From: Paracoccus solventivorans
Lineage (GTDB): Bacteria > Pseudomonadota > Alphaproteobacteria > Rhodobacterales > Rhodobacteraceae
NCBI RefSeq assembly: GCF_900142875.1
Contig: NZ_FRCK01000005.1
Location: 1-64,000 of the forward strand
Direction of reading: 5' to 3'
Length of the DNA: 64,000 nucleotides
In this document: one piece after another, positions 8,657 through 62,648 of the stretch
Layout: each line of letters opens with the position of its first letter
Numbering within the stretch: position 1 is the stretch's first letter
Position numbers and translations under genes: made by a program
Notes under the pieces: generated by a model
What the model was told of the DNA's origin: nothing
Seen by the model: only the letters and a program-made list of their open reading frames with translations
The model's database searches: none

Positions 8657-9325
8657 ATGCCGGACCGCAGCAGCGACCGCCAGCTTATGGTGGCCAGCCA
8701 GATCGCGCCGCGGGGCGTCGCCGACGCCAGGGTGCTCGACGCCATGCGCAGCGTCCCGCGCGAAGAGTTCGTGCCGCCGGCGCAGCGCGCCGATGCCTAT
8801 GCCGACCACCCGCTGCCGATCGGCTCGGGGCAGACCATCTCGCAGCCCTATATCGTGGCGATGATGCTGGAAGCGGCCGAGATCGCGCCCGAGGACCGCG
8901 TGCTCGAGATCGGCGCCGGCTCGGGCTATGCGGCGGCGGTGGCCAGCCGGCTGGCGGCCAGCGTCTGCGCGGTCGAGCGTATCGGCGATCTGGCCCGGGC
9001 CGCGGCCGGGCGGCTGGCCCGGCTGGGCTACGGCAATGTCGAGGTCCGCCACGACGACGGCACCGGCGGCTGGCCCGGCGGCGGCAGCTTCGACGTGATC
9101 CTGGTCGCCGCCGCGGGCCCCGAGATCCCGGCGCCGCTGCTGGCGCAGCTGGCCCCCGGCGGGCGGCTGGTGATGCCGGTGGGGCCGCGGGGCGAGGCGC
9201 AGCGGCTGACCCGCATCCGCCGCACGCCCGAGGGCGACCGCCACGAGGATCTGGGCGCGGTGGTCTTTGTTCCCCTGATCGGCGCGGCCGGCTATGCTGA
9301 TGATGGCGGGTCCGCGCCCGGCTGA
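8657..9325 (+). CDS. pcm: [20 protein letters not shown] O-methyltransferase
   Basis: 222 aa from ATG 8657, five to eight bases after GGGGG; a TTG at 8642 is a less likely start. Class I SAM-dependent fold: the SAM-binding loop VLEIGAGSGYAAA (about 81-93) and the PCMT signature GSGQTISQPYIVAMM (about 55-69) are clear. It methylates abnormal L-isoaspartyl residues to start their repair in the cytoplasm. In many proteobacteria pcm sits beside surE and tolC; here the partner is a pirin-like gene 39 bp downstream. Confidence 0.93.
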   Translation: MPDRSSDRQLMVASQIAPRGVADARVLDAMRSVPREEFVPPAQRADAYADHPLPIGSGQTISQPYIVAMMLEAAEIAPEDRVLEIGAGSGYAAAVASRLAASVCAVERIGDLARAAAGRLARLGYGNVEVRHDDGTGGWPGGGSFDVILVAAAGPEIPAPLLAQLAPGGRLVMPVGPRGEAQRLTRIRRTPEGDRHEDLGAVVFVPLIGAAGYADDGGSAPG

Positions 9326-9364
9326 CCGCTTCCGCCCGCTGTTGTTCCTTGCAGGAGACCCGAG

Positions 9365-10312
9365 ATGAGCTGGATGCCCGACCTGGAACCCGTCTGCCCC
9401 GATGCCGGGGCGCTGGACGACATCGAGCTGCTGATCGTGCCGCGCGCCCGGGACATCGGTGGTTTCGAGGTGCGCCGTGCGCTGCCCGCGCCCCGGCGGC
9501 AGATGGTCGGCCCGTTCATCTTCTTCGACCAGATGGGCCCGGCCGAGTTCATCCACGGCGGCGGCATCGACGTGCGCCCGCACCCGCATATCGGGCTGGC
9601 GACGCTGACCTATCTGTTCCGCGGCGCCTTCCAGCACCGCGACAGCCTGGGTTCGGACCAGATGATCCAGCCCGGCGCGGTCAACTGGATGGTGGCGGGC
9701 AACGGCGTCACCCATTCCGAACGCACCGACGCCGCCACCCGCGCCGCGCCGCACACGCTGTTCGGCATCCAGACCTGGGTGGCGCTGCCCGAGGCGCAGG
9801 AGGACGCGCCGGGCAGCTTCGAGCACCACGGCGCGGATGCGCTGCCGGTGCTGGAGGCCGAGGGCAAGCAGCTGCGGCTGATCGCCGGGCGCGGCTGGGG
9901 GGCGCGGGCGCCGGTGACCGTGCACAGCGACCTGTTCTATGCCGATGCGGTGCTGGCCCCCGGCGCCCGCCTGCCGCTGCCGCTCGACCACGAGGACCGC
10001 GGGCTATACGTCACCGAGGGCTCGGTGTTGGTGGCGGGCGAGGAGTTTCCCGCCGGCCGCATGATGGTGTTCCGCCCCGGCGACGAGATCACCGTGACGG
10101 CGGGCGAGCAGGGTGCGCGGTTCGTGGCACTGGGCGGCGAGACGCTGAACGGGCCGCGCTACATCATGTGGAACTTCGTCGCCTCGTCCCGCGAACGGCT
10201 GGAGGCGGCGCGCGAGGCGTGGAAGGCGGGCGATTTCGAGCACGGCCGTTTCCGGCTGCCGCCGGGCGATGATGCGGAGTTCGTGCCCTATCCGGGCGGG
10301 CCGGGGCGCTGA
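9365..10312 (+). CDS. Pirin family protein
   Basis: 315 aa bicupin. The N-terminal cupin keeps the metal ligands of pirins (VRPHPHIGLATLTY and HSERTD), and the C-terminal cupin follows with RYIMWNFVASS near the end. Bacterial pirins bind iron, and some act as quercetin 2,3-dioxygenase; the physiological substrate here cannot be read from sequence. Start ATG follows GCAGGAGACCC. It probably forms a two-gene unit with pcm, closed by a palindromic repeat before the convergent J-domain gene. Confidence 0.9.
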   Translation: MSWMPDLEPVCPDAGALDDIELLIVPRARDIGGFEVRRALPAPRRQMVGPFIFFDQMGPAEFIHGGGIDVRPHPHIGLATLTYLFRGAFQHRDSLGSDQMIQPGAVNWMVAGNGVTHSERTDAATRAAPHTLFGIQTWVALPEAQEDAPGSFEHHGADALPVLEAEGKQLRLIAGRGWGARAPVTVHSDLFYADAVLAPGARLPLPLDHEDRGLYVTEGSVLVAGEEFPAGRMMVFRPGDEITVTAGEQGARFVALGGETLNGPRYIMWNFVASSRERLEAAREAWKAGDFEHGRFRLPPGDDAEFVPYPGGPGR

Positions 10313-10321
10313 TCGCGGCGG

Positions 10322-10404
10322 CTGGGGGCTTTGCCCCCGGCCCGTGCCGGGCCTCCCCCAGGATATTTGCGGCACGGTGAAAGGGCGCCGGGCGCCCCCG
10401 GGCG
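10322..10404 (+). repeat. Intergenic palindrome, GGGATATTT family (short form)
   Basis: GGGGGCTTTGCCCCC, GGCCCGTGCCGGGCC and CCCCCAGGATATTTGC follow one another, then AAAGGGCGCCGGGCGCCC. The run is a string of small hairpins between the convergent pirin and J-domain genes. The middle part is nearly identical to the copies at 12484 and 58516. Confidence 0.8.
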
Positions 10405-12483: not shown

Positions 12484-12553
12484 GAGGCGCTGCCCCCGTC
12501 CCGTGCCGGGACTCCCCCGGGATATTTTTCCACCAAAGATATTTTCCACCAAG
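12484..12553 (+). repeat. Intergenic palindrome, GGGATATTT family (short form)
   Basis: Consists of GGCGCTGCCCCC, GTCCCGTGCCGGGAC and TCCCCCGGGATATTTTTCC, then an echo AAAGATATTTTCCACC. Located between glpX and its terminator. GTCCCGTGCCGGGAC is identical to the copy at 58516. Confidence 0.82.
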
Positions 12554-12625: not shown

Positions 12626-14389
12626 ATGTCTGCTTTCCTGAACGTCGAATCCTCGCTGACCGGCCGCCGCTGGGCCGGTCCCGATCCCATGGAAGAGCGG
12701 TTGGCCGAGGGGCTGGCGCAGGCCGCGCTGCTGCCCCTGCCGGTGGCGCGGGTGCTGGCCGCGCGCGGCGTGGCTGCCGAAGAGGCCGCCGGTCACCTGG
12801 AGCCGAAGCTGCGCGACCTGCTGCCCGACCCGCTGCGCCTGCGCGACATGGAGCTTGCGGCCGAGCGGCTGGTCGCCGCCGTGGTGGCGGGCGAGCGGAT
12901 TGCGGTGTTCGCCGATTACGACGTGGACGGCGGCGCCTCGGCGGCGCTGCTGCTGGGCTGGCTGCGCGCACAGGGGCGCGAGGCGACGCTGTATATCCCC
13001 GACCGCATCGACGAGGGCTACGGCCCCAACCCCGCCGCGATCGAGCAGCTTGCGCGCGACCATGCGCTGATCGTCTGCGTCGACTGCGGCACGCTGAGCC
13101 ACGAGGCGCTGGCGGTGGCCGAGGGCCGCGCCGACGTGATCGTGCTGGACCATCACCAGGGCGGCGAGACCTTGCCGCCGGTGCTGGCGGTGGTGAACCC
13201 CAACCGCGCCGATGAGGACGGGGCGCTGGGGCATCTCTGCGCCGCGGGGGTGGTGTTCCTGACGCTGGTGCAGGCCAACCGCGGCCTGCGTGCGCGCGGG
13301 CTGGCCGAGCCGGATCTGATCCGGATGCTGGATCTGGTGGCGCTGGCGACGGTGGCCGACGTGGCGCCGCTGCTGGGGGTGAACCGCGCCTTTGTCCGGC
13401 AGGGGCTGGCGATCATGGCGCGCCGCGCCCGCCCGGGGCTGGTGGCGCTGTCCGACGTGGCGCGGCTCGATTCGGCGCCCTCGGCCTTTCATCTCGGCTT
13501 CCTGCTGGGGCCGCGGATCAACGCCGGCGGCCGCGTCGGCCGCGCCGATCTGGGCGCGCGCTGCCTCTCGGCCACCGACCGCGCCGAGGCCGAGGCGCTG
13601 GCCGCCCAGCTGGATGCGCTGAACCATGAGCGCCGCGAGATCGAGGCGCTGGTCCGCGAATCCGCCTTTGCCCAGGCCGAAGCGCATGGCGACCCGGCGC
13701 TGTCCTGGGCCGCGGGCGAGGGCTGGCACCCCGGTGTCGTCGGCATCGTCGCGGCACGTCTGAAAGAGGCGACCGGCCGGCCGTCGGTGGTGATCGGCGT
13801 CGCGGGCGGCGTGGGCAAGGGCTCGGCCCGCTCGGTCCCCGGCTTCGACATCGGCCGCGCGGTGCAGCGGCTTCAGGCCGAGGGGCTGGTCACCCGCGGC
13901 GGCGGCCACGCCATGGCCGCGGGGCTGACGGTCGAGCCCGCGCAGATCGCCCCCGCCATGGCGCGGCTGTCCGAACTGGCGGCGGCGGCGCTGGCGGGAA
14001 GGGCGGCCGGGGCGCTGCGAATCTCGGGCCTGCTCGACGCGCGCGCCGCCACCCCCGAGATGATCGAGGCGCTGGAGCGCGCCGGTCCCTTCGGCGCTGG
14101 CGCCCCCGCGCCGCGCTTTGCGCTGAGCGACCTGATTCTCGAACAGGTGGACACCATGGGCGAGGGCCACCTGCGCCTGCGCGCCCGCAGCGGGGCCGGG
14201 GCGCTGGATGCGGTCGCCTGGGGTGCGATGCAGGGCGCGCTTGGCCCGGCGCTGCTGCGCGCGCGCGGGCGGCGTTTCCACCTGGCCGGGCGGCTGGAGC
14301 TGTCGCTGTGGGGCGGCCGCCAGCGCGTGCGCCTGCGCCTGGACGACGCCGCCGAGCCCGCGGGCAACGGAACGCCCCGGGCCGATTGA
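12626..14389 (+). CDS. recJ: Single-stranded-DNA-specific 5'-3' exonuclease RecJ
   Basis: 587 aa from ATG 12626. DHH-family metal motifs are present: FADYDVDGGASAALL (motif I, about 93), VDCGTLSHEAL (motif II region) and LDHHQGGE (DHH motif, about 172). The DHHA1/OB region includes GPRINAGGRVGRADLG and GGGHAMAAG. RecJ degrades ssDNA 5' to 3' in RecF-pathway recombination, mismatch repair and base excision. In motif I the usual DADG is DVDG, as is normal in RecJ. It is separated from glpX by a terminator, so it should have its own promoter, and tRNA-Glu lies about 100 bp downstream. Confidence 0.95.
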   Translation: MSAFLNVESSLTGRRWAGPDPMEERLAEGLAQAALLPLPVARVLAARGVAAEEAAGHLEPKLRDLLPDPLRLRDMELAAERLVAAVVAGERIAVFADYDVDGGASAALLLGWLRAQGREATLYIPDRIDEGYGPNPAAIEQLARDHALIVCVDCGTLSHEALAVAEGRADVIVLDHHQGGETLPPVLAVVNPNRADEDGALGHLCAAGVVFLTLVQANRGLRARGLAEPDLIRMLDLVALATVADVAPLLGVNRAFVRQGLAIMARRARPGLVALSDVARLDSAPSAFHLGFLLGPRINAGGRVGRADLGARCLSATDRAEAEALAAQLDALNHERREIEALVRESAFAQAEAHGDPALSWAAGEGWHPGVVGIVAARLKEATGRPSVVIGVAGGVGKGSARSVPGFDIGRAVQRLQAEGLVTRGGGHAMAAGLTVEPAQIAPAMARLSELAAAALAGRAAGALRISGLLDARAATPEMIEALERAGPFGAGAPAPRFALSDLILEQVDTMGEGHLRLRARSGAGALDAVAWGAMQGALGPALLRARGRRFHLAGRLELSLWGGRQRVRLRLDDAAEPAGNGTPRAD

Positions 14390-54661: not shown

Positions 54662-55060
54662 ATGGACATGAGTTTCGAGCCGGGGGGCGCACCGGAGGGG
54701 CCGTTCGTTTCCGCAAGGGACGGCGGCGCCGCGGGGCTGGAGCCGGGGCAGGCGATCGACGTGGCGGGCGAGATGTTTCGCGAGCTGGCCGAGGAGCTGC
54801 ACCGGCTGAGGGTCGGGCTGCGGGCCGGGCTGAAGGAGGGCGCGGCGGCAGAGCCCGGCGAGCTGTCCGGCGAGGTCAGGGAAGCGGCGAAGCTGGTGCG
54901 CGACCTGCGGGCCGCGACGCAGCTGGTGCTGGAGGAAAGGAACCGAGTTGACAAGCTTCGCAAGGAAATCGGCGGTCAGGCCGGAGCGGGCGGCCTTGAC
55001 CTTGACGCCGCACGAGACGAGATCGGGCGCCGCCTGGCTTGCCTGCGCCGGGCAGGCTGA
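54662..55060 (+). CDS. GTA g1-like small terminase
   Basis: 132 aa (ATG 54662; a second ATG at 54668). A central coiled coil is evident (FRELAEELHRLRVGLRAGL; VRDLRAATQLVLEERNRVDKLRKEI in parts). By position and character it matches RcGTA g1, the small terminase subunit that in GTAs has lost specific pac-site recognition, giving near-random packaging. Its last 113 bases overlap the start of g2, as in R. capsulatus. It is functional in appearance, but the cluster downstream is broken. Confidence 0.8.
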   Translation: MDMSFEPGGAPEGPFVSARDGGAAGLEPGQAIDVAGEMFRELAEELHRLRVGLRAGLKEGAAAEPGELSGEVREAAKLVRDLRAATQLVLEERNRVDKLRKEIGGQAGAGGLDLDAARDEIGRRLACLRRAG

Positions 55061-56357
55061 GGTCGACGAGTTCATCGGCGGGCTGTCGGACAATGCGCTT
55101 GCCAGCCTGCCGTGGCTGTTCGAGTTCTGGGCGCTGCCGCATCAGCTGCCGCCCGAGGGCGACTGGAAGTCCTGGGTGATCATGGGCGGGCGCGGAGCGG
55201 GCAAGACCCGCGCCGGGGCCGAGTGGGTGCGCGCGCAGGTCGAGGGCGCGAGCCCGGATGCGCCGGGGCGGGCGCGGCGGGTGGCGCTGGTGGCCGAGAC
55301 CTTCGACCAGGGGCGCGACGTGATGGTGATGGGCGACAGCGGCATCCTTGCCTGTTCGCCGCCCGACCGGCGCCCGGTGTGGGAGGCGGGGCGGCGGCGG
55401 CTGCTCTGGCCGAACGGCGCGACCGCGACGGTCTATTCGGCGCATGAGCCGGAGGCGCTGCGGGGGCCGCAGTTCGACGCGGCTTGGGTCGACGAGCTGG
55501 CCAAGTGGAAGAAGGCGGAGGAAAGCTGGGACATGCTGCAATTCGCGCTACGGCTGGGCGAGCATCCGCAGCAGGTGGTGACGACGACCCCGCGCAACGT
55601 GGGCGTGCTGAAGGCGATCCTGCGCAACCCGTCCACGGTGGTGACGCACGCGCCGACCGATGCGAACCGGGCCTATCTGGCGGAAAGTTTCCTGGCCGAG
55701 GTGCAGGCGCGCTATGCCGGCACGCGGCTGGGCCGGCAGGAGCTGGAGGGCGTTCTGCTGGAGGATGTCGAGGGCGCGCTGTGGACCACCGCGATGCTGG
55801 AGGGGTGCCGGGTGGATGCCGCGCCCGCGCTCGACCGGGTGGTGGTGGCGGTGGACCCGTCGGTCACCGGCGGTCCGGGCAGCGATGAATGCGGGATCGT
55901 GGTGGCGGGGGTGGTCTGCGAGGGGCCGCCGCAGGAGTGGCGGGCCTATGTGCTGGAGGATGCCAGCGTCCGCGGCGGGCCGGTGGACTGGGCGCGGGCG
56001 GCGATCGCCGCGATGGCGCGGCACGGGGCCGAGCGGCTGGTGGCCGAGGTCAACCAGGGCGGCGATCTGGTGGAGAGCGTGATCCGGCAGCTGGACCCTC
56101 TGGTCCCGTTCCGGGCGCTGCGGGCCGGGCGCGGCAAGGGCCTGCGGGCCGAGCCGGTGGCGGCGCTGTACGAGCAGGGCCGGGTCCGGCATCTGCGTGG
56201 GCTGGGCGCTTTGGAGGACCAGCTGTGCCGGATGACGGTGCGCGGGTTCGAGGGGCGGGGTAGCCCCGACCGGCTGGATGCGCTGGTCTGGGCGATCCAC
56301 GAGCTGATGATCGAACCGGCGGCGCATTACCGGCGGCCTCAGGTTCGGAGGCTGTAG
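54948..56357 (+). CDS. GTA g2-like large terminase
   Basis: 469 aa from TTG 54948, supported by a strong GGAGGAAAGG site inside g1. ATPase domain with Walker A GGRGAGKTRAG (about 78-88) and Walker B-like FDAAWVDELAKWK (about 173). Then the RNase H-like nuclease domain with VVAVDPSVTGGPGSDE (about 307) and RLDALVWAIHEL near the end (about 444), which holds late acidic residues. It packages host DNA into GTA heads. Intact in sequence. Confidence 0.93.
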   Translation: MTSFARKSAVRPERAALTLTPHETRSGAAWLACAGQAEVDEFIGGLSDNALASLPWLFEFWALPHQLPPEGDWKSWVIMGGRGAGKTRAGAEWVRAQVEGASPDAPGRARRVALVAETFDQGRDVMVMGDSGILACSPPDRRPVWEAGRRRLLWPNGATATVYSAHEPEALRGPQFDAAWVDELAKWKKAEESWDMLQFALRLGEHPQQVVTTTPRNVGVLKAILRNPSTVVTHAPTDANRAYLAESFLAEVQARYAGTRLGRQELEGVLLEDVEGALWTTAMLEGCRVDAAPALDRVVVAVDPSVTGGPGSDECGIVVAGVVCEGPPQEWRAYVLEDASVRGGPVDWARAAIAAMARHGAERLVAEVNQGGDLVESVIRQLDPLVPFRALRAGRGKGLRAEPVAALYEQGRVRHLRGLGALEDQLCRMTVRGFEGRGSPDRLDALVWAIHELMIEPAAHYRRPQVRRL

Positions 56358-56412: not shown

Positions 56413-56470
56413 CGGGAAGCGGTGGGGTCGTCCTTGGGGGGTGGCCCTTTTTCATGGACAGGAGGCACGC

Positions 56471-57733
56471 ATGGCGATGCGGTGGTTCGGGCGGCGTGGG
56501 CCGCGGGATGTCGGGAACGCGCCGCCGCGGGCGGTGGGTGAGGTCGAGGCGATGCCGGTGCCGGTGGCGGCGGTGCCGCCCGAGGTCAAGGCAAGCGCGG
56601 CCGGGCGGGTCGCGGCGGCGGCGCAAGGGGCCGGGCGGGCGCTGTGGGGCGGGCGCGACACCGGCGGGCTGACGAGATCGGGGTTCCTGGGCAACCCGGT
56701 GGGGTTCCGGGCGGTCAAGCTGATTGCCGAGGCCGCGGCGGCGGTGCCGCTGGTCTGTCAGGACGCCGAGCGGCGCTACGAGGTGCATCCGGTGCTGGAC
56801 CTGATGCGGCGGCCGAACCCGGCGCAGGGGCGGGCCGAGCTGTTCGAGGCGCTGTTCGGGCAGATCCTGCTGACCGGCAACGGGTATCTGGAGGCGGTGG
56901 ACGTGACCGACTCGGGCCTGCCCGCAGAGCTGCATGTGCTGCGCTCCGACCGCGTGAGCGTGGTTCCCGGGGCGGATGGCTGGCCGGTGGCCTATGAATA
57001 TGCGGTGGGCGGGCGCAAGCATCGCTTCGACATGACCGGCAGCCCCGACCCGATCTGCCATATCCGCAGCTTTCACCCCTCAGACGACCATTACGGGATG
57101 TCGCCGATGCAGGCGGCGCAGGTGGCGGTCGAGGTGCACAACTCGGCCAGCAGCTGGTCGCGGGCGCTGCTGGACAATGCGGCACGGCCCAGTGGCGCGA
57201 TCATCTACAAGGGGGCGGACGGGCAGGGGGTTCTGAGCCCCGAGCAATACGACCGGCTGGTCAGCGAGATGGAGAGCCACCATCAGGGCGCGCGCAATGC
57301 CGGGCGGCCGATGCTGCTGGAGGGGGGGCTCGACTGGAAGCCGATGGGATTCTCGCCCTCGGACATGGAGTTCCACCAGACCAAGCTGGCGGCGGCGCGG
57401 GAGATCGCCATGGCCTTCGGGGTGCCGCCGATGCTGATCGGGATCCCCGGCGAGGCGACCTATGCCAATTATGCCGAGGCGCATCGGGCGTTCTATCGAC
57501 TGACGGTGTTGCCGCTGGCGACGCGGGTGGCGGCGGGGATCGGCTGGTGGCTGAGCGAGCATCTGGGGGCCGAGATCGACCTGCGCCCGGACCTGGACCA
57601 GATCCCGGCGCTGGCGGAAGAGCGCGACCAGCACTGGCGGCGGGTCGGTGCGGCCGGGTTCCTGACCGAGGCCGAGAAGCGCGCGGCGCTGGGGCTGCCG
57701 CCGCTGGCCGCGGCCGATCCTGCGGGGGGCTAG
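56471..57733 (+). CDS. GTA g3-like portal protein (HK97 type)
   Basis: 420 aa from ATG 56471 (upstream CAGGAGGC). Phage portal (HK97 gp3) signatures: FRAVKLIAEAAAAVPL, LLTGNGYLEAVDV (about 140), HPSDDHYGMSPMQAA (about 195), and MAFGVPPMLIGIPGEATYANYAEA (given as AFGVPPMLIGIPG; about 315). It forms the dodecameric DNA gate of the head. Intact. Confidence 0.95.
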   Translation: MAMRWFGRRGPRDVGNAPPRAVGEVEAMPVPVAAVPPEVKASAAGRVAAAAQGAGRALWGGRDTGGLTRSGFLGNPVGFRAVKLIAEAAAAVPLVCQDAERRYEVHPVLDLMRRPNPAQGRAELFEALFGQILLTGNGYLEAVDVTDSGLPAELHVLRSDRVSVVPGADGWPVAYEYAVGGRKHRFDMTGSPDPICHIRSFHPSDDHYGMSPMQAAQVAVEVHNSASSWSRALLDNAARPSGAIIYKGADGQGVLSPEQYDRLVSEMESHHQGARNAGRPMLLEGGLDWKPMGFSPSDMEFHQTKLAAAREIAMAFGVPPMLIGIPGEATYANYAEAHRAFYRLTVLPLATRVAAGIGWWLSEHLGAEIDLRPDLDQIPALAEERDQHWRRVGAAGFLTEAEKRAALGLPPLAAADPAGG

Positions 57734-57734
57734 G

Positions 57735-57965
57735 ATGGAAGGGTCGAAGTTCGTCGACCGGCCGGGAATCTGGCATGAGCAGAAGCTCGAGGCGCAAGAG
57801 CGGATCATGGCGCTGCAATTCGGGCAGGTGGACCGGCGGCTGGAACGGATCGAGGCGCTGATCGAGGGGCTGGAGCGGCGGCTGTGGATGACGGTCTACG
57901 GCGTGGTCGCGGTGATCCTGACCCAGGCGGTGCAGTCGATCCTGCAATTCGCGCCGAAGGGATGA
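57735..57965 (+). CDS. GTA g3.5-like head formation protein
   Basis: 76 aa. A charged helical region (residues ~15-48; GQVDRRLERIEALIEGLERR) is followed by a C-terminal hydrophobic segment (VYGVVAVILTQAVQSIL). Matches by place and size the RcGTA g3.5 protein (RCAP_rcc01685 family). One base after the portal gene, and 11 bases before the protease start. Confidence 0.85.
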   Translation: MEGSKFVDRPGIWHEQKLEAQERIMALQFGQVDRRLERIEALIEGLERRLWMTVYGVVAVILTQAVQSILQFAPKG

Positions 57966-57976
57966 GGGAGAACGGA

Positions 57977-58516
57977 ATGGATGATCCGGGGCTGGAGCTG
58001 AAATATGCGGGCGGGCTGCCCTTGCAGGCCGAGACCGGCGCGGAGGGCTGCGTGATCGAGGGTTATGCCAGCCTGTTCGGGGTTGCCGACCAGGGGGGCG
58101 ACATGATCGCGGCGGGGGCCTATGCGGGCAGCCTGGCGCGGATCGCGGCGCGGGGGGACCGGGTGCGGATGCTGTGGCAGCACGACCCCGCCCACCCGAT
58201 CGGCGTGTGGGAGGAGATCCGCGAGGACAGCCGCGGGCTGTGGGTGCGCGGGCGGCTGCTGCCCGAGGTGGCGCGGGCGCGCGAGGCGGCGGCGCTGGTC
58301 GCGGCGGGCGCCATCGACGGGCTGTCGATCGGCTATCGCACCCTGCGGGCCGAGCGCGACGGCCAGGGGCGGCGGGTACTGACCGAGGTCGATCTGTGGG
58401 AGGTGTCGCTGGTCACCTTCCCGATGCTGCGCGAGGCGAAGCTGGGGCAGAAGTCCCGGGCGGATCCGGCTGGGGTGCTGCGGGCGGCGGCGGAGGTTTT
58501 GCGCGCGGGGCGGTAG
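57977..58516 (+). CDS. GTA g4-like HK97 prohead protease
   Basis: 179 aa from ATG 57977 (upstream GAGGGAG); ATG 57962 would add five residues. Herpesvirus/HK97-type serine protease fold: VIEGYASLFGVADQGGDMI, catalytic His in LWQHDPAHPIG (about 63) and Ser in GAIDGLSIGYRT (about 117). It trims the capsid protein N-terminus (delta domain). Its natural substrate is truncated in this genome. Confidence 0.93.
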   Translation: MDDPGLELKYAGGLPLQAETGAEGCVIEGYASLFGVADQGGDMIAAGAYAGSLARIAARGDRVRMLWQHDPAHPIGVWEEIREDSRGLWVRGRLLPEVARAREAAALVAAGAIDGLSIGYRTLRAERDGQGRRVLTEVDLWEVSLVTFPMLREAKLGQKSRADPAGVLRAAAEVLRAGR

Positions 58517-58580
58517 GGGGCTTTGCCCCCGTCCCGTGCCGGGACTCCCCCAGGATATTTTCAGACAGAAGATGTTTTCT
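58516..58580 (+). repeat. Intergenic palindrome, GGGATATTT family, between GTA protease and capsid
   Basis: GGGGGCTTTGCCCCC, GTCCCGTGCCGGGAC, TCCCCCAGGATATTTTC, then AGACAGAAGATGTTTTCT. The core is identical to copies at 10322 and 12484, and it starts in the stop codon region of the protease gene. Confidence 0.85.
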
Positions 58581-58671: not shown

Positions 58672-58690
58672 CAGATGAGGAGAGACGGCG

Positions 58691-61600
58691 ATGACCGAGG
58701 TTAAGGCCGCAGGGGCCGGGGCCGCTGCCGGGGCCATGCCGGCCGGCGTGGAGGGTGCGATGGCGGAGTTCGTCAGTGAACTCAAGGGCTTTCGCGAGAC
58801 GATCGAACAGAAACTGCAAGCACAGGACAGACGCATGACCATGCTGGACCGCAAGACCGCCCTTCGGGGCCGCTCGCCGCTTTCGCAGGCCGCCGAGATC
58901 GAGGCGCCGCATCAGAAAGCCTTTGCCGCCTATCTGCGCCGCGGCGACGACGCTGGGCTGCGCGGGCTGGCGGTCGAGGAGAAGGCCATGGCCTCGGGGA
59001 CCGACGGCGGCTATCTGGCCGCGCCGGTGATTTCCGACACCGTGCAGGAGGCGCTGCGGGGCGCGGGCTCGCGGGCGATAAGGGCCTCGGGCAAGTCGGC
59101 GGTGTTCTATCCGTTCATCCTGTTGGAGCAGCTGGCGGGGAACGGCCTGCCTGATCCGTGGAGCGTGCCGGATGAGGACGGGGTGATCCCCGAGCAGCCG
59201 GTGATGCCGTGGCGGGGGCGGATCACCAGCTCGGTCGCGGCGGGGCGGGCGGGCTCGCCGCAAGGGACGGCGGCGGCTGAGGCCGAGGTGGCGGCGTTTT
59301 TCGGCCGCGCGGCGCCGGGGGATTTTGCCGTGCAGGCCGGGCGCGTGGTCTATTCCGGGCCGGATGAGTGGTCCTATCGCCGTTTCATCCTGCATTACGC
59401 GCATCTGTGCCGGCTGGCGGGGGGCGTGGGGGCATTCCTGATCGGGTCCGAGATGGTGGCGCTGACGCAGATCCGCGGCGCTGCCGGCTATCCGGCGGTG
59501 GCGGCGCTGCGGCAGCTGGCCGCGGATGTGCGCGGCATTCTGGGGCCGGGCGTCAAGCTGAGCTATGCTGCGGATTGGAGCGAGTATTTCGGCCATCATC
59601 CCGGTGGCGACGAGGCGCGGTTCCATCTGGACCCGCTGTGGGGCGACGAGAACATCGATTTCATCGGCATCGACAATTACATGCCGCTGTCGGACTGGCG
59701 CGAGGGCGATGCGCATCTGGACGCGCATTGGGGCGATGTGCGCAACCCCGATTACCTGCGCGCGAATGTCTGCGGCGGCGAGGGCTACGACTGGTATTAC
59801 GCCAGCGAAGAGCACCGCGAGGTGCAGACCCGCACCCCGATCACCGACGGGCAGGCCGAGCCGTGGATCTGGCGCACCAAGGACCTGCGCGGCTGGTGGT
59901 CGAACTGGCATTATGAGCGCCGGCCCGGCGGCGAGCGCGCGGCCGAGCCGACCGCCTGGGTGCCGGGCTCGAAGCCGATCTGGTTCACCGAATACGGCTG
60001 CGCCGCGCTGGACCGCGCCACGAACCAGCCCAACAAGTTCCTGGATGCGATGAGCAGCGAATCCTCGCTGCCGCGCTATTCGCGGGGGCTGCGCGACGAT
60101 GCGATGCAAGCGGCCTATGTCGAGGCGGTGAACTCCTACTGGGCCGATCCGGGGAACAACCCCGAGATGGAGGGCGGCGGGCGCATGGTCGATCTGTCGC
60201 GCGCCCATGTCTGGGCCTGGGACGCGCGGCCTTATCCGGCGTTTCCGGCGCTGGGCGATCTGTGGTCGGACGGGCCGGCGTGGGAGCGTGGGCACTGGCT
60301 GAACGGGCGTGCGGGCGCGATGGCGCTGGCGGATGTGGTGCGCGATATCTGCGCGGGCTCGGGGCTGGGGGCGGTGGATGCCGGCGGGCTTTACGGGGTG
60401 GTGCGCGGCTATGCGGTGCAGGGGCCGGAAACCGGCCGCGCCGCCTTGCAGCCGCTGATGCTGGCCCATGGGTTCGACGCGGTGGAACGCGAGGGCGTGC
60501 TGCGCTTCGTCATGCGCGACGGGCGGGCGGCGGCGGTGCTGGAGGAGGGCGTGCTGGCCGTGGCCGAGGGGCAGGGCGGGTTCGAGATCACCCGCGCGCC
60601 CGACGCCGAGATGCCGGGCCGCATCCGGCTGAGCCATATCGAGGCCGGTGCCGATTACGCGCTGGGCACGGCCGAGGCGGCGATGCCGGAACGGGCGCGC
60701 ATCTCGACCGCGGACAGCGAGTTTCCGATGGTGCTGACCCGCCCCGAGGCGCAGGCGACCGCGCTGCGCTGGCTGGCCGAGACGCTGGTCGCGCAGGAGG
60801 CGGCGCGGTTCGCGCTGCCGCCCTCACTGGGGCATCTGGGGCCGGGGGATGTGGTGGCGATGGCGGATGGCACCGGCGCGGGCGGGCGCTGGCGCATCGA
60901 CCGCATCGAGCGCGCGGGGGCGCTGCTGGCCGAGGCGGTGCGGGTTGAGCCGGGCGTCTACCGGCCGTTGCCGTTCGTTTCCGGGACGCTGCAGGGGAAA
61001 CCTTATGTAGCGGCGGGGCCGGTCTGGCCGCTGTTTCTGGACCTGCCGCTGCTGACGGGGGACGAGGCCCCCCATGCGCCGTGGCTGGCAGTGGCGGCGA
61101 CGCCCTGGCCGGGGGCGGCGCGGGCCTGGGTCTCGGTCGACGCGGCGGCGGGGTATCAGCCGAACGTGATCCTGCCGGGGCCTGCGGTGATGGGGGTGAC
61201 GCTTGCGCCGCTGGTGGCGGCGCGGCCGGGGGTGGTGGACCGCGGCCCGGCGCTGCGGCTGCGGCTGAAGGGCGGCAACCTGCGCTCGGTGACGGCGAAT
61301 GCGCTGCTGGCCGGGGGGAACCTGCTGGCGATCGGCGACGGCTCCCCGGACCGGTGGGAGCTGATGCAGTTCGCGCAGGCGCGGCTGGTGGCGCCGGGCG
61401 AGTGGGAGGTTTGGGAGCGGCTGCGCGGGCAGGCGGGGACCGATGCGCTGATGCCGGCGGAATGGCCCTCGGGCAGCGTGTTGGTGCTGCTGGATGGCGG
61501 GCCGCGGCAAGTGGAACTGCCTGCGTCCGCGCGGTTGCAGCTGCGGCATTGGCTTGTGGGGCCGGCAAGCCTGTCGCCCGAGGATGCGGCCTATCGCCAT

Positions 61601-61939
61601 CAGGCGGTGGTGGCGGGCGGCGCCGGGCTGCGGCCGCTGTCGCCCTGCCATCTGCGGATTGAGGGGCGGGTGGTGCGCTGGATCCGGCGCACGCGGGTCG
61701 ATGGCGACAGCTGGGAGGCGCCCGAGGTGCCGCTGGGCGAGACCTCGGAACGCTATCTGCTGCAGTTGCTGCGGGGTGATATCGAGCTGCATCGCGCCGA
61801 GGTCACGGGGCCGGAGTATGAAATCCCGGCCTCAGTCTGGGCAGCGGCGCGCGCGGGCGGCGGGTTTGCCGTCGCGGTGGCGCAGCTGTCGGAACTTTAC
61901 GGGCCGGGCCCGTCTGTCAGGAGGAATGTCGATGTCTGA
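58691..61939 (+). CDS. In-frame chimera: GTA g5 major capsid N-terminus fused to g15 megatron C-terminus
   Basis: 1082 aa, ATG 58691 after GAGGAGAGACGG. Residues 1 to ~128 are the start of the HK97-type major capsid protein: a coiled-coil delta region (SELKGFRETIEQKLQAQDRR), then KAFAAYLRRGD, KAMASGTDGGYLAAPVISD and ALRGAGS. At about residue 128-132 (nt ~59070-59090) the sequence changes abruptly to the g15 baseplate protein: SAVFYPFILLEQLAGNGLPDPW, the GTA TIM-barrel/glycosidase-like domain (YRRFILHYAHLCRLAGG, SYAADWSEYFGHHPGGDE, DFIGIDNYMPLSDWREGD, WFTEYGCAALD), then the tail-hub and C-terminal domains to residue 1082. Missing: ~270 aa of capsid, g6 to g14, and ~350 aa of g15. The frame stays open through the joint. 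Such a protein cannot build a capsid; whether it is made is unknown. Confidence 0.9.
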   Translation: MTEVKAAGAGAAAGAMPAGVEGAMAEFVSELKGFRETIEQKLQAQDRRMTMLDRKTALRGRSPLSQAAEIEAPHQKAFAAYLRRGDDAGLRGLAVEEKAMASGTDGGYLAAPVISDTVQEALRGAGSRAIRASGKSAVFYPFILLEQLAGNGLPDPWSVPDEDGVIPEQPVMPWRGRITSSVAAGRAGSPQGTAAAEAEVAAFFGRAAPGDFAVQAGRVVYSGPDEWSYRRFILHYAHLCRLAGGVGAFLIGSEMVALTQIRGAAGYPAVAALRQLAADVRGILGPGVKLSYAADWSEYFGHHPGGDEARFHLDPLWGDENIDFIGIDNYMPLSDWREGDAHLDAHWGDVRNPDYLRANVCGGEGYDWYYASEEHREVQTRTPITDGQAEPWIWRTKDLRGWWSNWHYERRPGGERAAEPTAWVPGSKPIWFTEYGCAALDRATNQPNKFLDAMSSESSLPRYSRGLRDDAMQAAYVEAVNSYWADPGNNPEMEGGGRMVDLSRAHVWAWDARPYPAFPALGDLWSDGPAWERGHWLNGRAGAMALADVVRDICAGSGLGAVDAGGLYGVVRGYAVQGPETGRAALQPLMLAHGFDAVEREGVLRFVMRDGRAAAVLEEGVLAVAEGQGGFEITRAPDAEMPGRIRLSHIEAGADYALGTAEAAMPERARISTADSEFPMVLTRPEAQATALRWLAETLVAQEAARFALPPSLGHLGPGDVVAMADGTGAGGRWRIDRIERAGALLAEAVRVEPGVYRPLPFVSGTLQGKPYVAAGPVWPLFLDLPLLTGDEAPHAPWLAVAATPWPGAARAWVSVDAAAGYQPNVILPGPAVMGVTLAPLVAARPGVVDRGPALRLRLKGGNLRSVTANALLAGGNLLAIGDGSPDRWELMQFAQARLVAPGEWEVWERLRGQAGTDALMPAEWPSGSVLVLLDGGPRQVELPASARLQLRHWLVGPASLSPEDAAYRHQAVVAGGAGLRPLSPCHLRIEGRVVRWIRRTRVDGDSWEAPEVPLGETSERYLLQLLRGDIELHRAEVTGPEYEIPASVWAAARAGGGFAVAVAQLSELYGPGPSVRRNVDV

Positions 61940-62648
61940 ACAGGTCACGGGGCGCCACTTCCTGCCCTTGCTGCAGCCGGCGCAGGCGCAGAAACACGTC
62001 ACGGTGAACGAGTCGCTGCTGCGGCTGGACGGGCTGGTCAATCTGGTGCTGCAGGGCGCGGCGCGGGTCCAGCCCCCGGCGGTGGTCGAGGGCGAGTGCT
62101 GGGGCGTGGGTGCTGGCGCCACGGGTGCGTGGGAGGGGCAGGCGGGCCGCATCGCCATCGGCGCCAATGGCGGCTGGGTGTTCGCGACGCCGCAGCGCGG
62201 GCAGCGGGCGTTCCTGCTTGACCGTGGCGCGGAGGCGGTCTGGGACGGGCAGGAATGGCGCGGCGGTGCGCTGACGCTGGGCCTGTGGGGTGGCGGCATC
62301 AGCGCCGGGATTCTTGAGGCAGAGGTTTCGCTGGGTGCGGGCGCGGTGGTGGCGACGGGGGTGGAAATTCCCTCGCATGTGCTGGTGCTGGGGGTGACCG
62401 CGCGGGTGGTCGAGGCGATCACCGGGACGCTGGGCGCCTGGGCGCTGGGGGTCGAGGGCGCGGCGGACCGCTATGGCTCGGGGCTGGGGCTGGGGGTGAA
62501 CTCGTGGTCGCAGGGGCTGCTGTCGGCACCGATGGCGATTTGGGCGCCCGAGGAACTGCTGCTGACCGCCTTGGGCGGCGCGTTCGCCGGGGGGCGGCTG
62601 CGGCTGGCGGTGCATTACCTGGCGCTGCGGGTGCCGGATGCGGTGTGA
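61932..62648 (+). CDS. DUF2793 protein of the GTA cluster
   Basis: 238 aa from ATG 61932. It overlaps the g15 end by eight bases and has an AGGAGG site. N-terminal DUF2793 (about 1-105): FLPLLQPAQAQKHVTVNESL, GECWGVGAGATGAWEGQAG and WVFATPQRGQRAFLLD. The C-terminal part (about 125-238) is Gly/Ala/Leu-rich with GVNSWSQGLLSAPMAIWAPEEL. It lies directly after g15 in R. capsulatus too (where the product is a putative tail fibre/attachment component). Intact reading frame. Confidence 0.86.
   Translation: MSEQVTGRHFLPLLQPAQAQKHVTVNESLLRLDGLVNLVLQGAARVQPPAVVEGECWGVGAGATGAWEGQAGRIAIGANGGWVFATPQRGQRAFLLDRGAEAVWDGQEWRGGALTLGLWGGGISAGILEAEVSLGAGAVVATGVEIPSHVLVLGVTARVVEAITGTLGAWALGVEGAADRYGSGLGLGVNSWSQGLLSAPMAIWAPEELLLTALGGAFAGGRLRLAVHYLALRVPDAV

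What the first reader, a model, noticed from the sequence alone, without database searches (positions are those of the whole stretch)
58691..61939. GTA major capsid and g15 baseplate protein joined in one open reading frame by a large deletion
One uninterrupted 1082-codon frame starts as the HK97-like GTA capsid (residues 1 to ~128) and continues as the C-terminal ~950 residues of g15. All of g6-g14 (head-tail connectors, major tail protein, tape measure, hub genes) are gone. The junction near nt 59070-59090 keeps the reading frame. Genes g1-g4 upstream and DUF2793 downstream look intact, so the loss is either recent or the remaining parts are under some selection. A capsid coiled-coil region fused to a TIM-barrel/cell-wall-active-like protein under a capsid-strength ribosome site would be a new protein type, possibly exported or membrane-bound or simply debris. 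R. capsulatus-type clusters are normally conserved, so an in-frame collapse is notable.
Basis: partly seen in the sequence, partly recalled or inferred. Interest (0 to 1): 0.88.

Follow-up and report, generated by a model that had tools for sequence, protein, structure and literature searches.

The report
Gene transfer agent cluster, recently gutted
A bacterium of the genus Paracoccus has recently lost the middle of the gene set that builds its virus-like DNA-carrying particle, and the cut happened to splice the start of the shell gene onto the end of a tail gene; other cuts of this kind are seen in related species, so the spliced gene is most likely debris rather than a new kind of protein.

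Summary
Window 58691-61939 is one 1,082-codon frame: capsid codons 1-127 joined at 59070-59073 to g15 codons 342-1297. Against Paracoccus alkenifer DSM 11593, the nearest genome found, whose cluster is whole, this is one clean 7,078-bp deletion with a 2-bp overlap at the break. The lost DNA was not found elsewhere in the genome. g2-g4 and DUF2793 are intact.

The reading as a new protein type is not supported. The chimera was seen in this genome only. Of 125 Paracoccus genomes at least seven others have their own, different internal deletions or truncations of this cluster. One (P. salipaludis) also joins capsid to g15, independently and out of frame. Others join an amidase to g15 and g15 to DUF2793, both in frame. 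Substitution rates in the retained genes are as constrained as in relatives, so the deletion is probably very recent, though continued use would look the same.

Most likely this is a newly GTA-null lineage, a loss-of-production "cheater" of the kind already proposed in print. It is a clean example of a known kind. It also gives a GTA-minus/GTA-plus species pair and a genus with several stages of GTA decay.

The parts
54662..55060 (+). g1, probable small terminase (name recalled, from its place in the cluster)
   Evidence: ORF; first gene of the cluster, in a stretch collinear with P. alkenifer; identity not tested by profile
54948..56357 (+). g2, terminase large subunit, intact (start codon uncertain)
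   Evidence: Pfam Terminase_6N and 6C; 100% coverage, 97% identity to P. alkenifer
56441..57733 (+). g3, portal protein, intact (start codon uncertain)
   Evidence: Pfam Phage_portal E 1.4e-86; 100% coverage, 97% identity to P. alkenifer
57914..58516 (+). g4, prohead protease, open (start codon uncertain)
   Evidence: Pfam Peptidase_S78 E 2.5e-30; 89% identity to P. alkenifer
58677..58684 (+). Shine-Dalgarno-like GAGGAGAG of the capsid gene, now in front of the chimera
   Evidence: sequence; same or one-base variant in P. alkenifer and five other species
58691..59071 (+). 5' part of the capsid gene g5, codons 1-127
   Evidence: 95% identical to P. alkenifer capsid over query 1-131; matches RcGTA capsid 6tba_C5
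59070..59073 (+). deletion junction; 7,078 bp missing against P. alkenifer; break ambiguous over 2 bp (GC), inside an 11-bp word (CGCTGCGGGCG) that P. alkenifer has at both ends
59072..61939 (+). 3' part of g15 (megatron), codons 342-1297 and stop
   Evidence: 93% identical to P. alkenifer g15; RcGTA megatron 350-1301
59369..60247 (+). GTA_TIM domain (residues 227-519), whole
   Evidence: Pfam PF13547 positions 1-299 of 299, E 2.6e-139
60425..60910 (+). Phage-tail_3 domain (residues 579-740)
   Evidence: Pfam PF13550, E 7.7e-46
61184..61486 (+). Rcc01698_C domain (residues 832-932)
   Evidence: Pfam PF23666, E 9.2e-32
61932..62648 (+). DUF2793 gene, intact
   Evidence: Pfam PF10983, E 9e-27; 100% coverage, 92% identity to P. 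alkenifer

Best explanation
An RcGTA-type gene transfer agent head-tail cluster that lost 7,078 bp in one recent illegitimate (short-homology) deletion. The lineage can no longer make a capsid, connectors, tail tube, tape measure, distal tail or hub, so it is GTA-null. The chimera keeps the capsid gene's ribosome-binding site and start and is in frame by a one-in-three chance. If the cluster is still switched on, a polypeptide made of the capsid N-terminal region and a megatron lacking its iris, adhesin-like and first peripheral segments could be made, but with no particle to join. Shown: the deletion, its ends, absence of the lost DNA elsewhere in the assembly, the intact relative, other deletions in the genus, and no rate relaxation. 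Inferred: loss of particle production, recency, and lack of function of the chimera.
For: Single clean break against P. alkenifer. No copy of the lost DNA or of g13 elsewhere (control). Of 115 genus genomes with a g15 orthologue, 104 have g3-g15 complete by coverage (102, P. alkenifer, and G085, whose g7 covers 69%), 8 are cut by contig ends (5 fetched, 3 not) and 3 have internal deletions. Among the other 10 genomes, 5 more show internal deletions or truncations. The 250-residue junction query found nothing in the other 393 family genomes at E<=1e-60 (a much diverged fusion could fall below that). omega on the window's branch for the six retained genes together is 0.085 against 0.091 in the background; 0.11 is rejected (2dlnL 4.9), so if neutral after the deletion about 2% or less of the branch since P. 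alkenifer has passed; for the fused frame alone 0.14 is rejected, about 5%. Capsid remnant omega about 0 and g15 part 0.092, neither different from background.
Against: One draft assembly (27 contigs), no reads. The same unrelaxed rates would be seen if the remains were still useful. My optimiser was not perfect: a few likelihood differences came out slightly negative or odd (g2 and g3, one point). Two independent deletions join capsid to g15 with ends about 35 and 10 codons apart; a uniform-end simulation (run with 38 and 8 codons) gives 0.0024, chosen after the fact. Particle production was not tested.
Confidence: 0.87

Rival explanations
1. The g15 C-terminal part (with DUF2793) has a use of its own after the particle is lost, and selection keeps it; the capsid ribosome site now drives it.
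For: In 7 of the 8 genus genomes with deletions or truncations some 3' part of g15 remains. In P. methylarcula g15 is whole and unrelaxed (omega 0.100 vs 0.107; 0.14 rejected) while the broken g2 is relaxed (0.174 vs 0.077, p 0.004; 0.011 after trimming).
Against: Remnants are as short as 119 residues (G020) and 227 (G074). DUF2793 is frameshifted in P. methylarcula and split over two frames in G103, yet shows no relaxation in P. methylarcula (0.044 vs 0.103, p 0.06), so the rate test is blunt there. The g2 signal sits in its first half only (second half p 0.52), the inverted g3 piece is not significantly relaxed (p 0.17), and P. methylarcula g15 does have more unique changes at otherwise invariant columns than its neighbour G087 (39 of 710 against 22 of 693). 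Four clusters complete by coverage have a nonsense codon in g15. g15 is the longest and last large gene, so internal deletions end in it by size. In P. salipaludis it is out of frame with the capsid start. Finding these clusters through g15 favours its survival, although g3 and g13 were also searched in the ten genomes without full g15.
Confidence: 0.07
2. Assembly error: the real cluster is complete and the contig skips 7 kb.
For: Draft genome; no reads available.
Against: 2-bp overlap only. The skipped DNA is nowhere in an assembly scored 99.5% complete.
Confidence: 0.04
3. Deletion hotspot or programmed excision between capsid and g15.
For: Two independent capsid-g15 joins with nearby ends; three of six right ends lie within about 35 codons of g15 (332, 342, about 365).
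Against: Overlaps at the breaks are 2 and 1 bp with different sequence. Three of six within 42 codons has chance 0.054 under uniform ends. Other species break elsewhere. No recombinase or shared repeat pair was seen, but none was specially searched for.
Confidence: 0.02

Closest known systems
RcGTA head-tail cluster of Rhodobacter capsulatus (rhodogtaviriform type)
   Same: Gene order of the remaining genes; capsid and megatron sequence
   Different: Lacks two thirds of capsid, g6-g14 and the first 341 codons of g15, so no particle can be expected
Pseudogenised or lost GTA clusters of Alphaproteobacteria, proposed as recent cheater lineages (PMC10883770, Discussion read)
   Same: Same kind of event: structural genes lost while other GTA genes remain
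   Different: Here the single break, its size and an upper bound on its age are resolved, and it makes an in-frame chimera
Paracoccus salipaludis WN007 capsid-g15 join (G065, L036)
   Same: Capsid 5' part joined to g15 3' part at nearby positions
   Different: Independent: other ends, 6,869 bp against P. chinensis, out of frame, g2-g4 not found upstream
In-frame chimeras elsewhere in the genus: g15-DUF2793 (G034), amidase-g15 (G074)
   Same: In-frame joins involving the same cluster
   Different: Other partner genes; each seen in one genome

Membership tests
Functional RcGTA-type gene transfer agent | Complete head-tail genes g2-g15 | tested here: not met
   g6-g14 absent, capsid 32% and g15 74% covered
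Functional RcGTA-type gene transfer agent | Missing genes encoded elsewhere in the genome | tested here: not met
   deleted DNA and g13 protein not found; control; other lost proteins not searched one by one
Functional RcGTA-type gene transfer agent | Particle production and DNA transfer | not testable with these tools
   needs culture
Recently pseudogenised GTA cluster | Collinear with an intact cluster in a close species | tested here: met
   P. alkenifer
Recently pseudogenised GTA cluster | Loss of genes needed for a particle | tested here: met
   that these genes are needed is established knowledge of RcGTA, not tested
Recently pseudogenised GTA cluster | Remaining genes open and not yet relaxed (recent) | tested here: met
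   also compatible with continued use
New fused protein family | Fusion shared by more than one species | tested here: not met
   not seen in the other 124 genus genomes, of which 3 contig-edge cases (G075, G086, G016) could not be judged; 0 of the other 393 family genomes at E<=1e-60; 0 exact junctions in viral contigs
New fused protein family | Selection on the fused reading frame after fusion | tested here: inconclusive
   No relaxation, but too recent to tell
New fused protein family | Expressed product | not testable with these tools
   needs RNA or protein data

The most novel reading that the evidence does not exclude
In Paracoccus the C-terminal part of the GTA megatron protein (TIM barrel, central and fibre-binding parts) outlives the particle and has its own use, for instance as a cell-surface or released polysaccharide-binding or -cutting protein; the window's chimera is one way to keep it expressed from the capsid ribosome site.
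Probability: 0.06. Interest if true: 0.75.

Novelty: new member of a known kind. Interest (0 to 1): 0.33.

Why it matters
Why bacteria keep suicidal GTA genes is an open question, and a published model predicts non-producing cheater lineages (PMC10883770). This genome and P. alkenifer form a close pair in which one cluster is whole and the other is stopped by a single deletion. The genus holds a graded series from nonsense mutation to near-complete loss, so rates and order of GTA loss can be measured. The chimera itself is probably of no consequence.

Tried and rejected
Tried without use: the 250-residue junction query in 394 family genomes found only this genome. The exact 30-base junction was found 0 times in viral contigs. 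In the phage collection 32 records match, none over more than 32% of the query in the rows listed, and the features named there are g15-like tail proteins. The AlphaFold2 model of the chimera from 15 sequences has mean pLDDT 58.6 and under 50 over most of residues 1-135, so nothing is taken from it. PF11351 (GTA-type holin) occurs in all 12 genomes asked, including one with no cluster left (G066), so it does not tell producers from non-producers. mltG was found in only two of the eight genomes' fetched DNA and could not serve as a rate control. IQ-TREE did not run (thread setting); the trees are FastTree trees. The first junction calculation used a wrong offset; one search replaces it. The simulations stand, run with 38 and 8 codons where the final ends differ by about 35 and 10.

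Rejected: G028 looked like an internal g15 deletion but is a run of N in the assembly. G030 (79% complete, 6% contamination, many frameshifts; g2 next to g9) is not counted. Stops reported near the ends of g3, g8, g9 and g13 I take to be natural gene ends. Inner stops or frameshifts in G124, G047, G089, G001 and G093, and the stop flagged in contig-edge G016, were not followed, so 'complete' in my counts means covered, not open in every frame. A shared ancestry of the window's and P. salipaludis' deletions is rejected: different ends, and intact relatives beside each on the tree.

Full report
What is there. The frame at 58691-61939 is real: ATG, 1,082 codons, no stop. Its N-terminal part is the GTA major capsid protein and the rest is the megatron protein g15. 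Against solved RcGTA chains, residues 15-132 match the capsid (6tba_C5, 5-124) and 126-1079 match the megatron (6tba_8A, 350-1301). Pfam finds the whole GTA_TIM domain, Phage-tail_3 and Rcc01698_C. The genes before it (terminase, portal, prohead protease) and after it (DUF2793) match their families and cover the P. alkenifer proteins fully.

How it arose. Its cluster is whole. The window runs collinear with it to 59072 and again from 59067 at about 90-92% DNA identity, with 7 kb of P. alkenifer DNA between. The best placement is a break at 59070-59073, capsid codon 127 to g15 codon 342, 7,078 bp, 2-bp overlap. P. alkenifer has an 11-bp word, CGCTGCGGGCG, at both ends, and the break lies in it, but the product is shorter than simple recombination at that word would give. 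The missing DNA is not elsewhere in the assembly: 18 of 25 matches fall on one dispersed repeat, the best two covering 70 and 93 query bases, and the other 7 are 29-48 bases long. g13 gives no hit, although the same query finds g13 in P. alkenifer.

How common such events are. All 125 genomes of the genus that the tool holds were searched with the g15 part; 115 have an orthologue. For 111 of these the surrounding DNA was examined with 15 P. alkenifer proteins; P. alkenifer is the 112th; three contig-edge cases (G075, G086, G016) were not fetched. Complete by coverage from g3 to g15: 102, plus P. alkenifer, plus G085 (only g7 at 69%). Cut by contig ends: L006, L123, L125, L162 and L176 besides the three. 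Internal deletions: this genome, P. salipaludis (G065) and P. methylarcula (G017). The other ten genomes were searched with the chimera, g3 and g13, and the region was read in seven of them. G020 has g2 codons 1-83 next to g15 1179-1297, out of frame. G074 has an amidase gene joined in frame to g15 from about 1068 (Pfam Amidase then Rcc01698_C). G034 (88% complete) has g2-g14 and g15 1-255 joined in frame to DUF2793 59-236. G103 has g3, a short frame I take for g3.5, then g15 from about codon 365 in another frame, with a further in-frame loss inside the TIM barrel. G081 has a full capsid and 175 bp on g15 from codon 825, then a contig break. G066 has no match to g3, g13 or the chimera. G028 is an N gap; G030, G033 and G040 are too poor or carry only a distant copy. 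So at least 8 of 125 genomes have lost part of the cluster by internal deletion or truncation, in ways that differ from each other. Four further genomes have a nonsense codon in g15 (G032, G004, G042, G062). In an independent collection the same two named species, P. salipaludis and P. methylarcula, stood out among 80 loci, of which 8 were cut by contig ends.

The twin. P. salipaludis WN007 joins capsid to g15 too. Its deletion is 6,869 bp against P. chinensis with a 1-bp overlap (against two less similar relatives the fit is poorer and the overlap reads 2 or 6 bp). Its ends lie about 35 codons away in the capsid and about 10 in g15, the two parts are in different frames, and g2-g4 were not found in the 10 kb upstream. 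The tree of the g15 part puts it apart from the window and P. alkenifer with full support, among intact species (the order inside that group is weakly supported). It is independent. Nearby ends may hint at a weak spot, but the test was chosen afterwards.

Selection. I wrote a codon model with one omega for a chosen tip and one for the rest. For the window's branch: g2 0.044 (background 0.048), g3 0.030 (0.071, p 0.01, lower), g4 0.229 (0.160, not significant), capsid part about 0 (0.153, not significant), g15 part 0.092 (0.082), DUF2793 0.086 (0.094). All six together: 0.085 (0.091), with 0.11 rejected. Some likelihood differences came out slightly negative or odd, so the last decimals are soft. 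The capsid fragment in P. salipaludis, which can hardly serve a capsid, is just as constrained (0.018), which argues that both deletions are simply recent. In P. methylarcula, where the cluster is scrambled, g15 is whole and unrelaxed (0.100 vs 0.107) while g2 is relaxed (0.174 vs 0.077, p 0.004). This is the best hint that g15 could be kept for its own sake, but it rests on one half of one gene, the inverted g3 piece (p 0.17) and the frameshifted DUF2793 (0.044 vs 0.103, p 0.06) do not show it, and g15 itself has more unique changes at invariant columns than a neighbour (39 of 710 against 22 of 693).

What the chimera could do. RcGTA megatron has iris/penetration 1-46, adhesin-like 47-229, peripheral 230-744, central 745-984 and fibre-binding 985-1304 parts (PMC7296036, passages seen). 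The chimera lacks the first two and the first part of the third. A 2026 preprint says in its introduction that the exact function of the peripheral TIM-barrel domain has remained unknown (PMC13420450, passages). A product could be made from the old capsid ribosome site, but there is no head, tail tube or hub for it to join. The structure prediction was too poor to use.

Place among known things. [quoted passage not shown] PMC9662315 notes that RcGTA-like regions are often annotated as intact or incomplete prophages (passage). PMC9836097 cites purifying selection on RcGTA-related genes (passage). PMC3925955 describes a 14.7-kb GTA cluster of 18 putative genes in P. aminophilus (passage). In five searches of the paper library (titles and abstract starts) I saw no report of this fusion or of repeated internal deletions in Paracoccus; subscription papers are mostly not held.

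Verdict. The chimera is most likely a by-product of a recent deletion that silenced the GTA. The better finding is the series of separate losses in the genus.

Noticed in passing
window 58515-58562; also 10347-10369 and 12506-12528: A dispersed repeat (core CCGGGACTCCCCCAGGATATTTT) lies between g4 and the capsid gene, matches 18 places in the genome search, and also sits between g11 and g12 in P. alkenifer.
   Followed up: partly
L034, L163, L170, L175: Four Paracoccus genomes (G032, G004, G042, G062) with clusters complete by coverage each have one TAG codon inside g15, at different places; probably further GTA-null strains.
   Followed up: partly
L265 about 8880-9977: In G074 an amidase gene is joined in frame to the g15 C-terminal end, an amidase-g15 chimera in a genome of two contigs.
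   Followed up: partly
L269 about 12892-14166: In G034 g15 codons 1-255 are joined in frame to DUF2793 codons 59-236, with g2-g14 present.
   Followed up: no
L121: P. methylarcula has a scrambled cluster: frameshifted g2, an inverted g4-g3 piece, the end of g14, and a full-length g15.
   Followed up: partly
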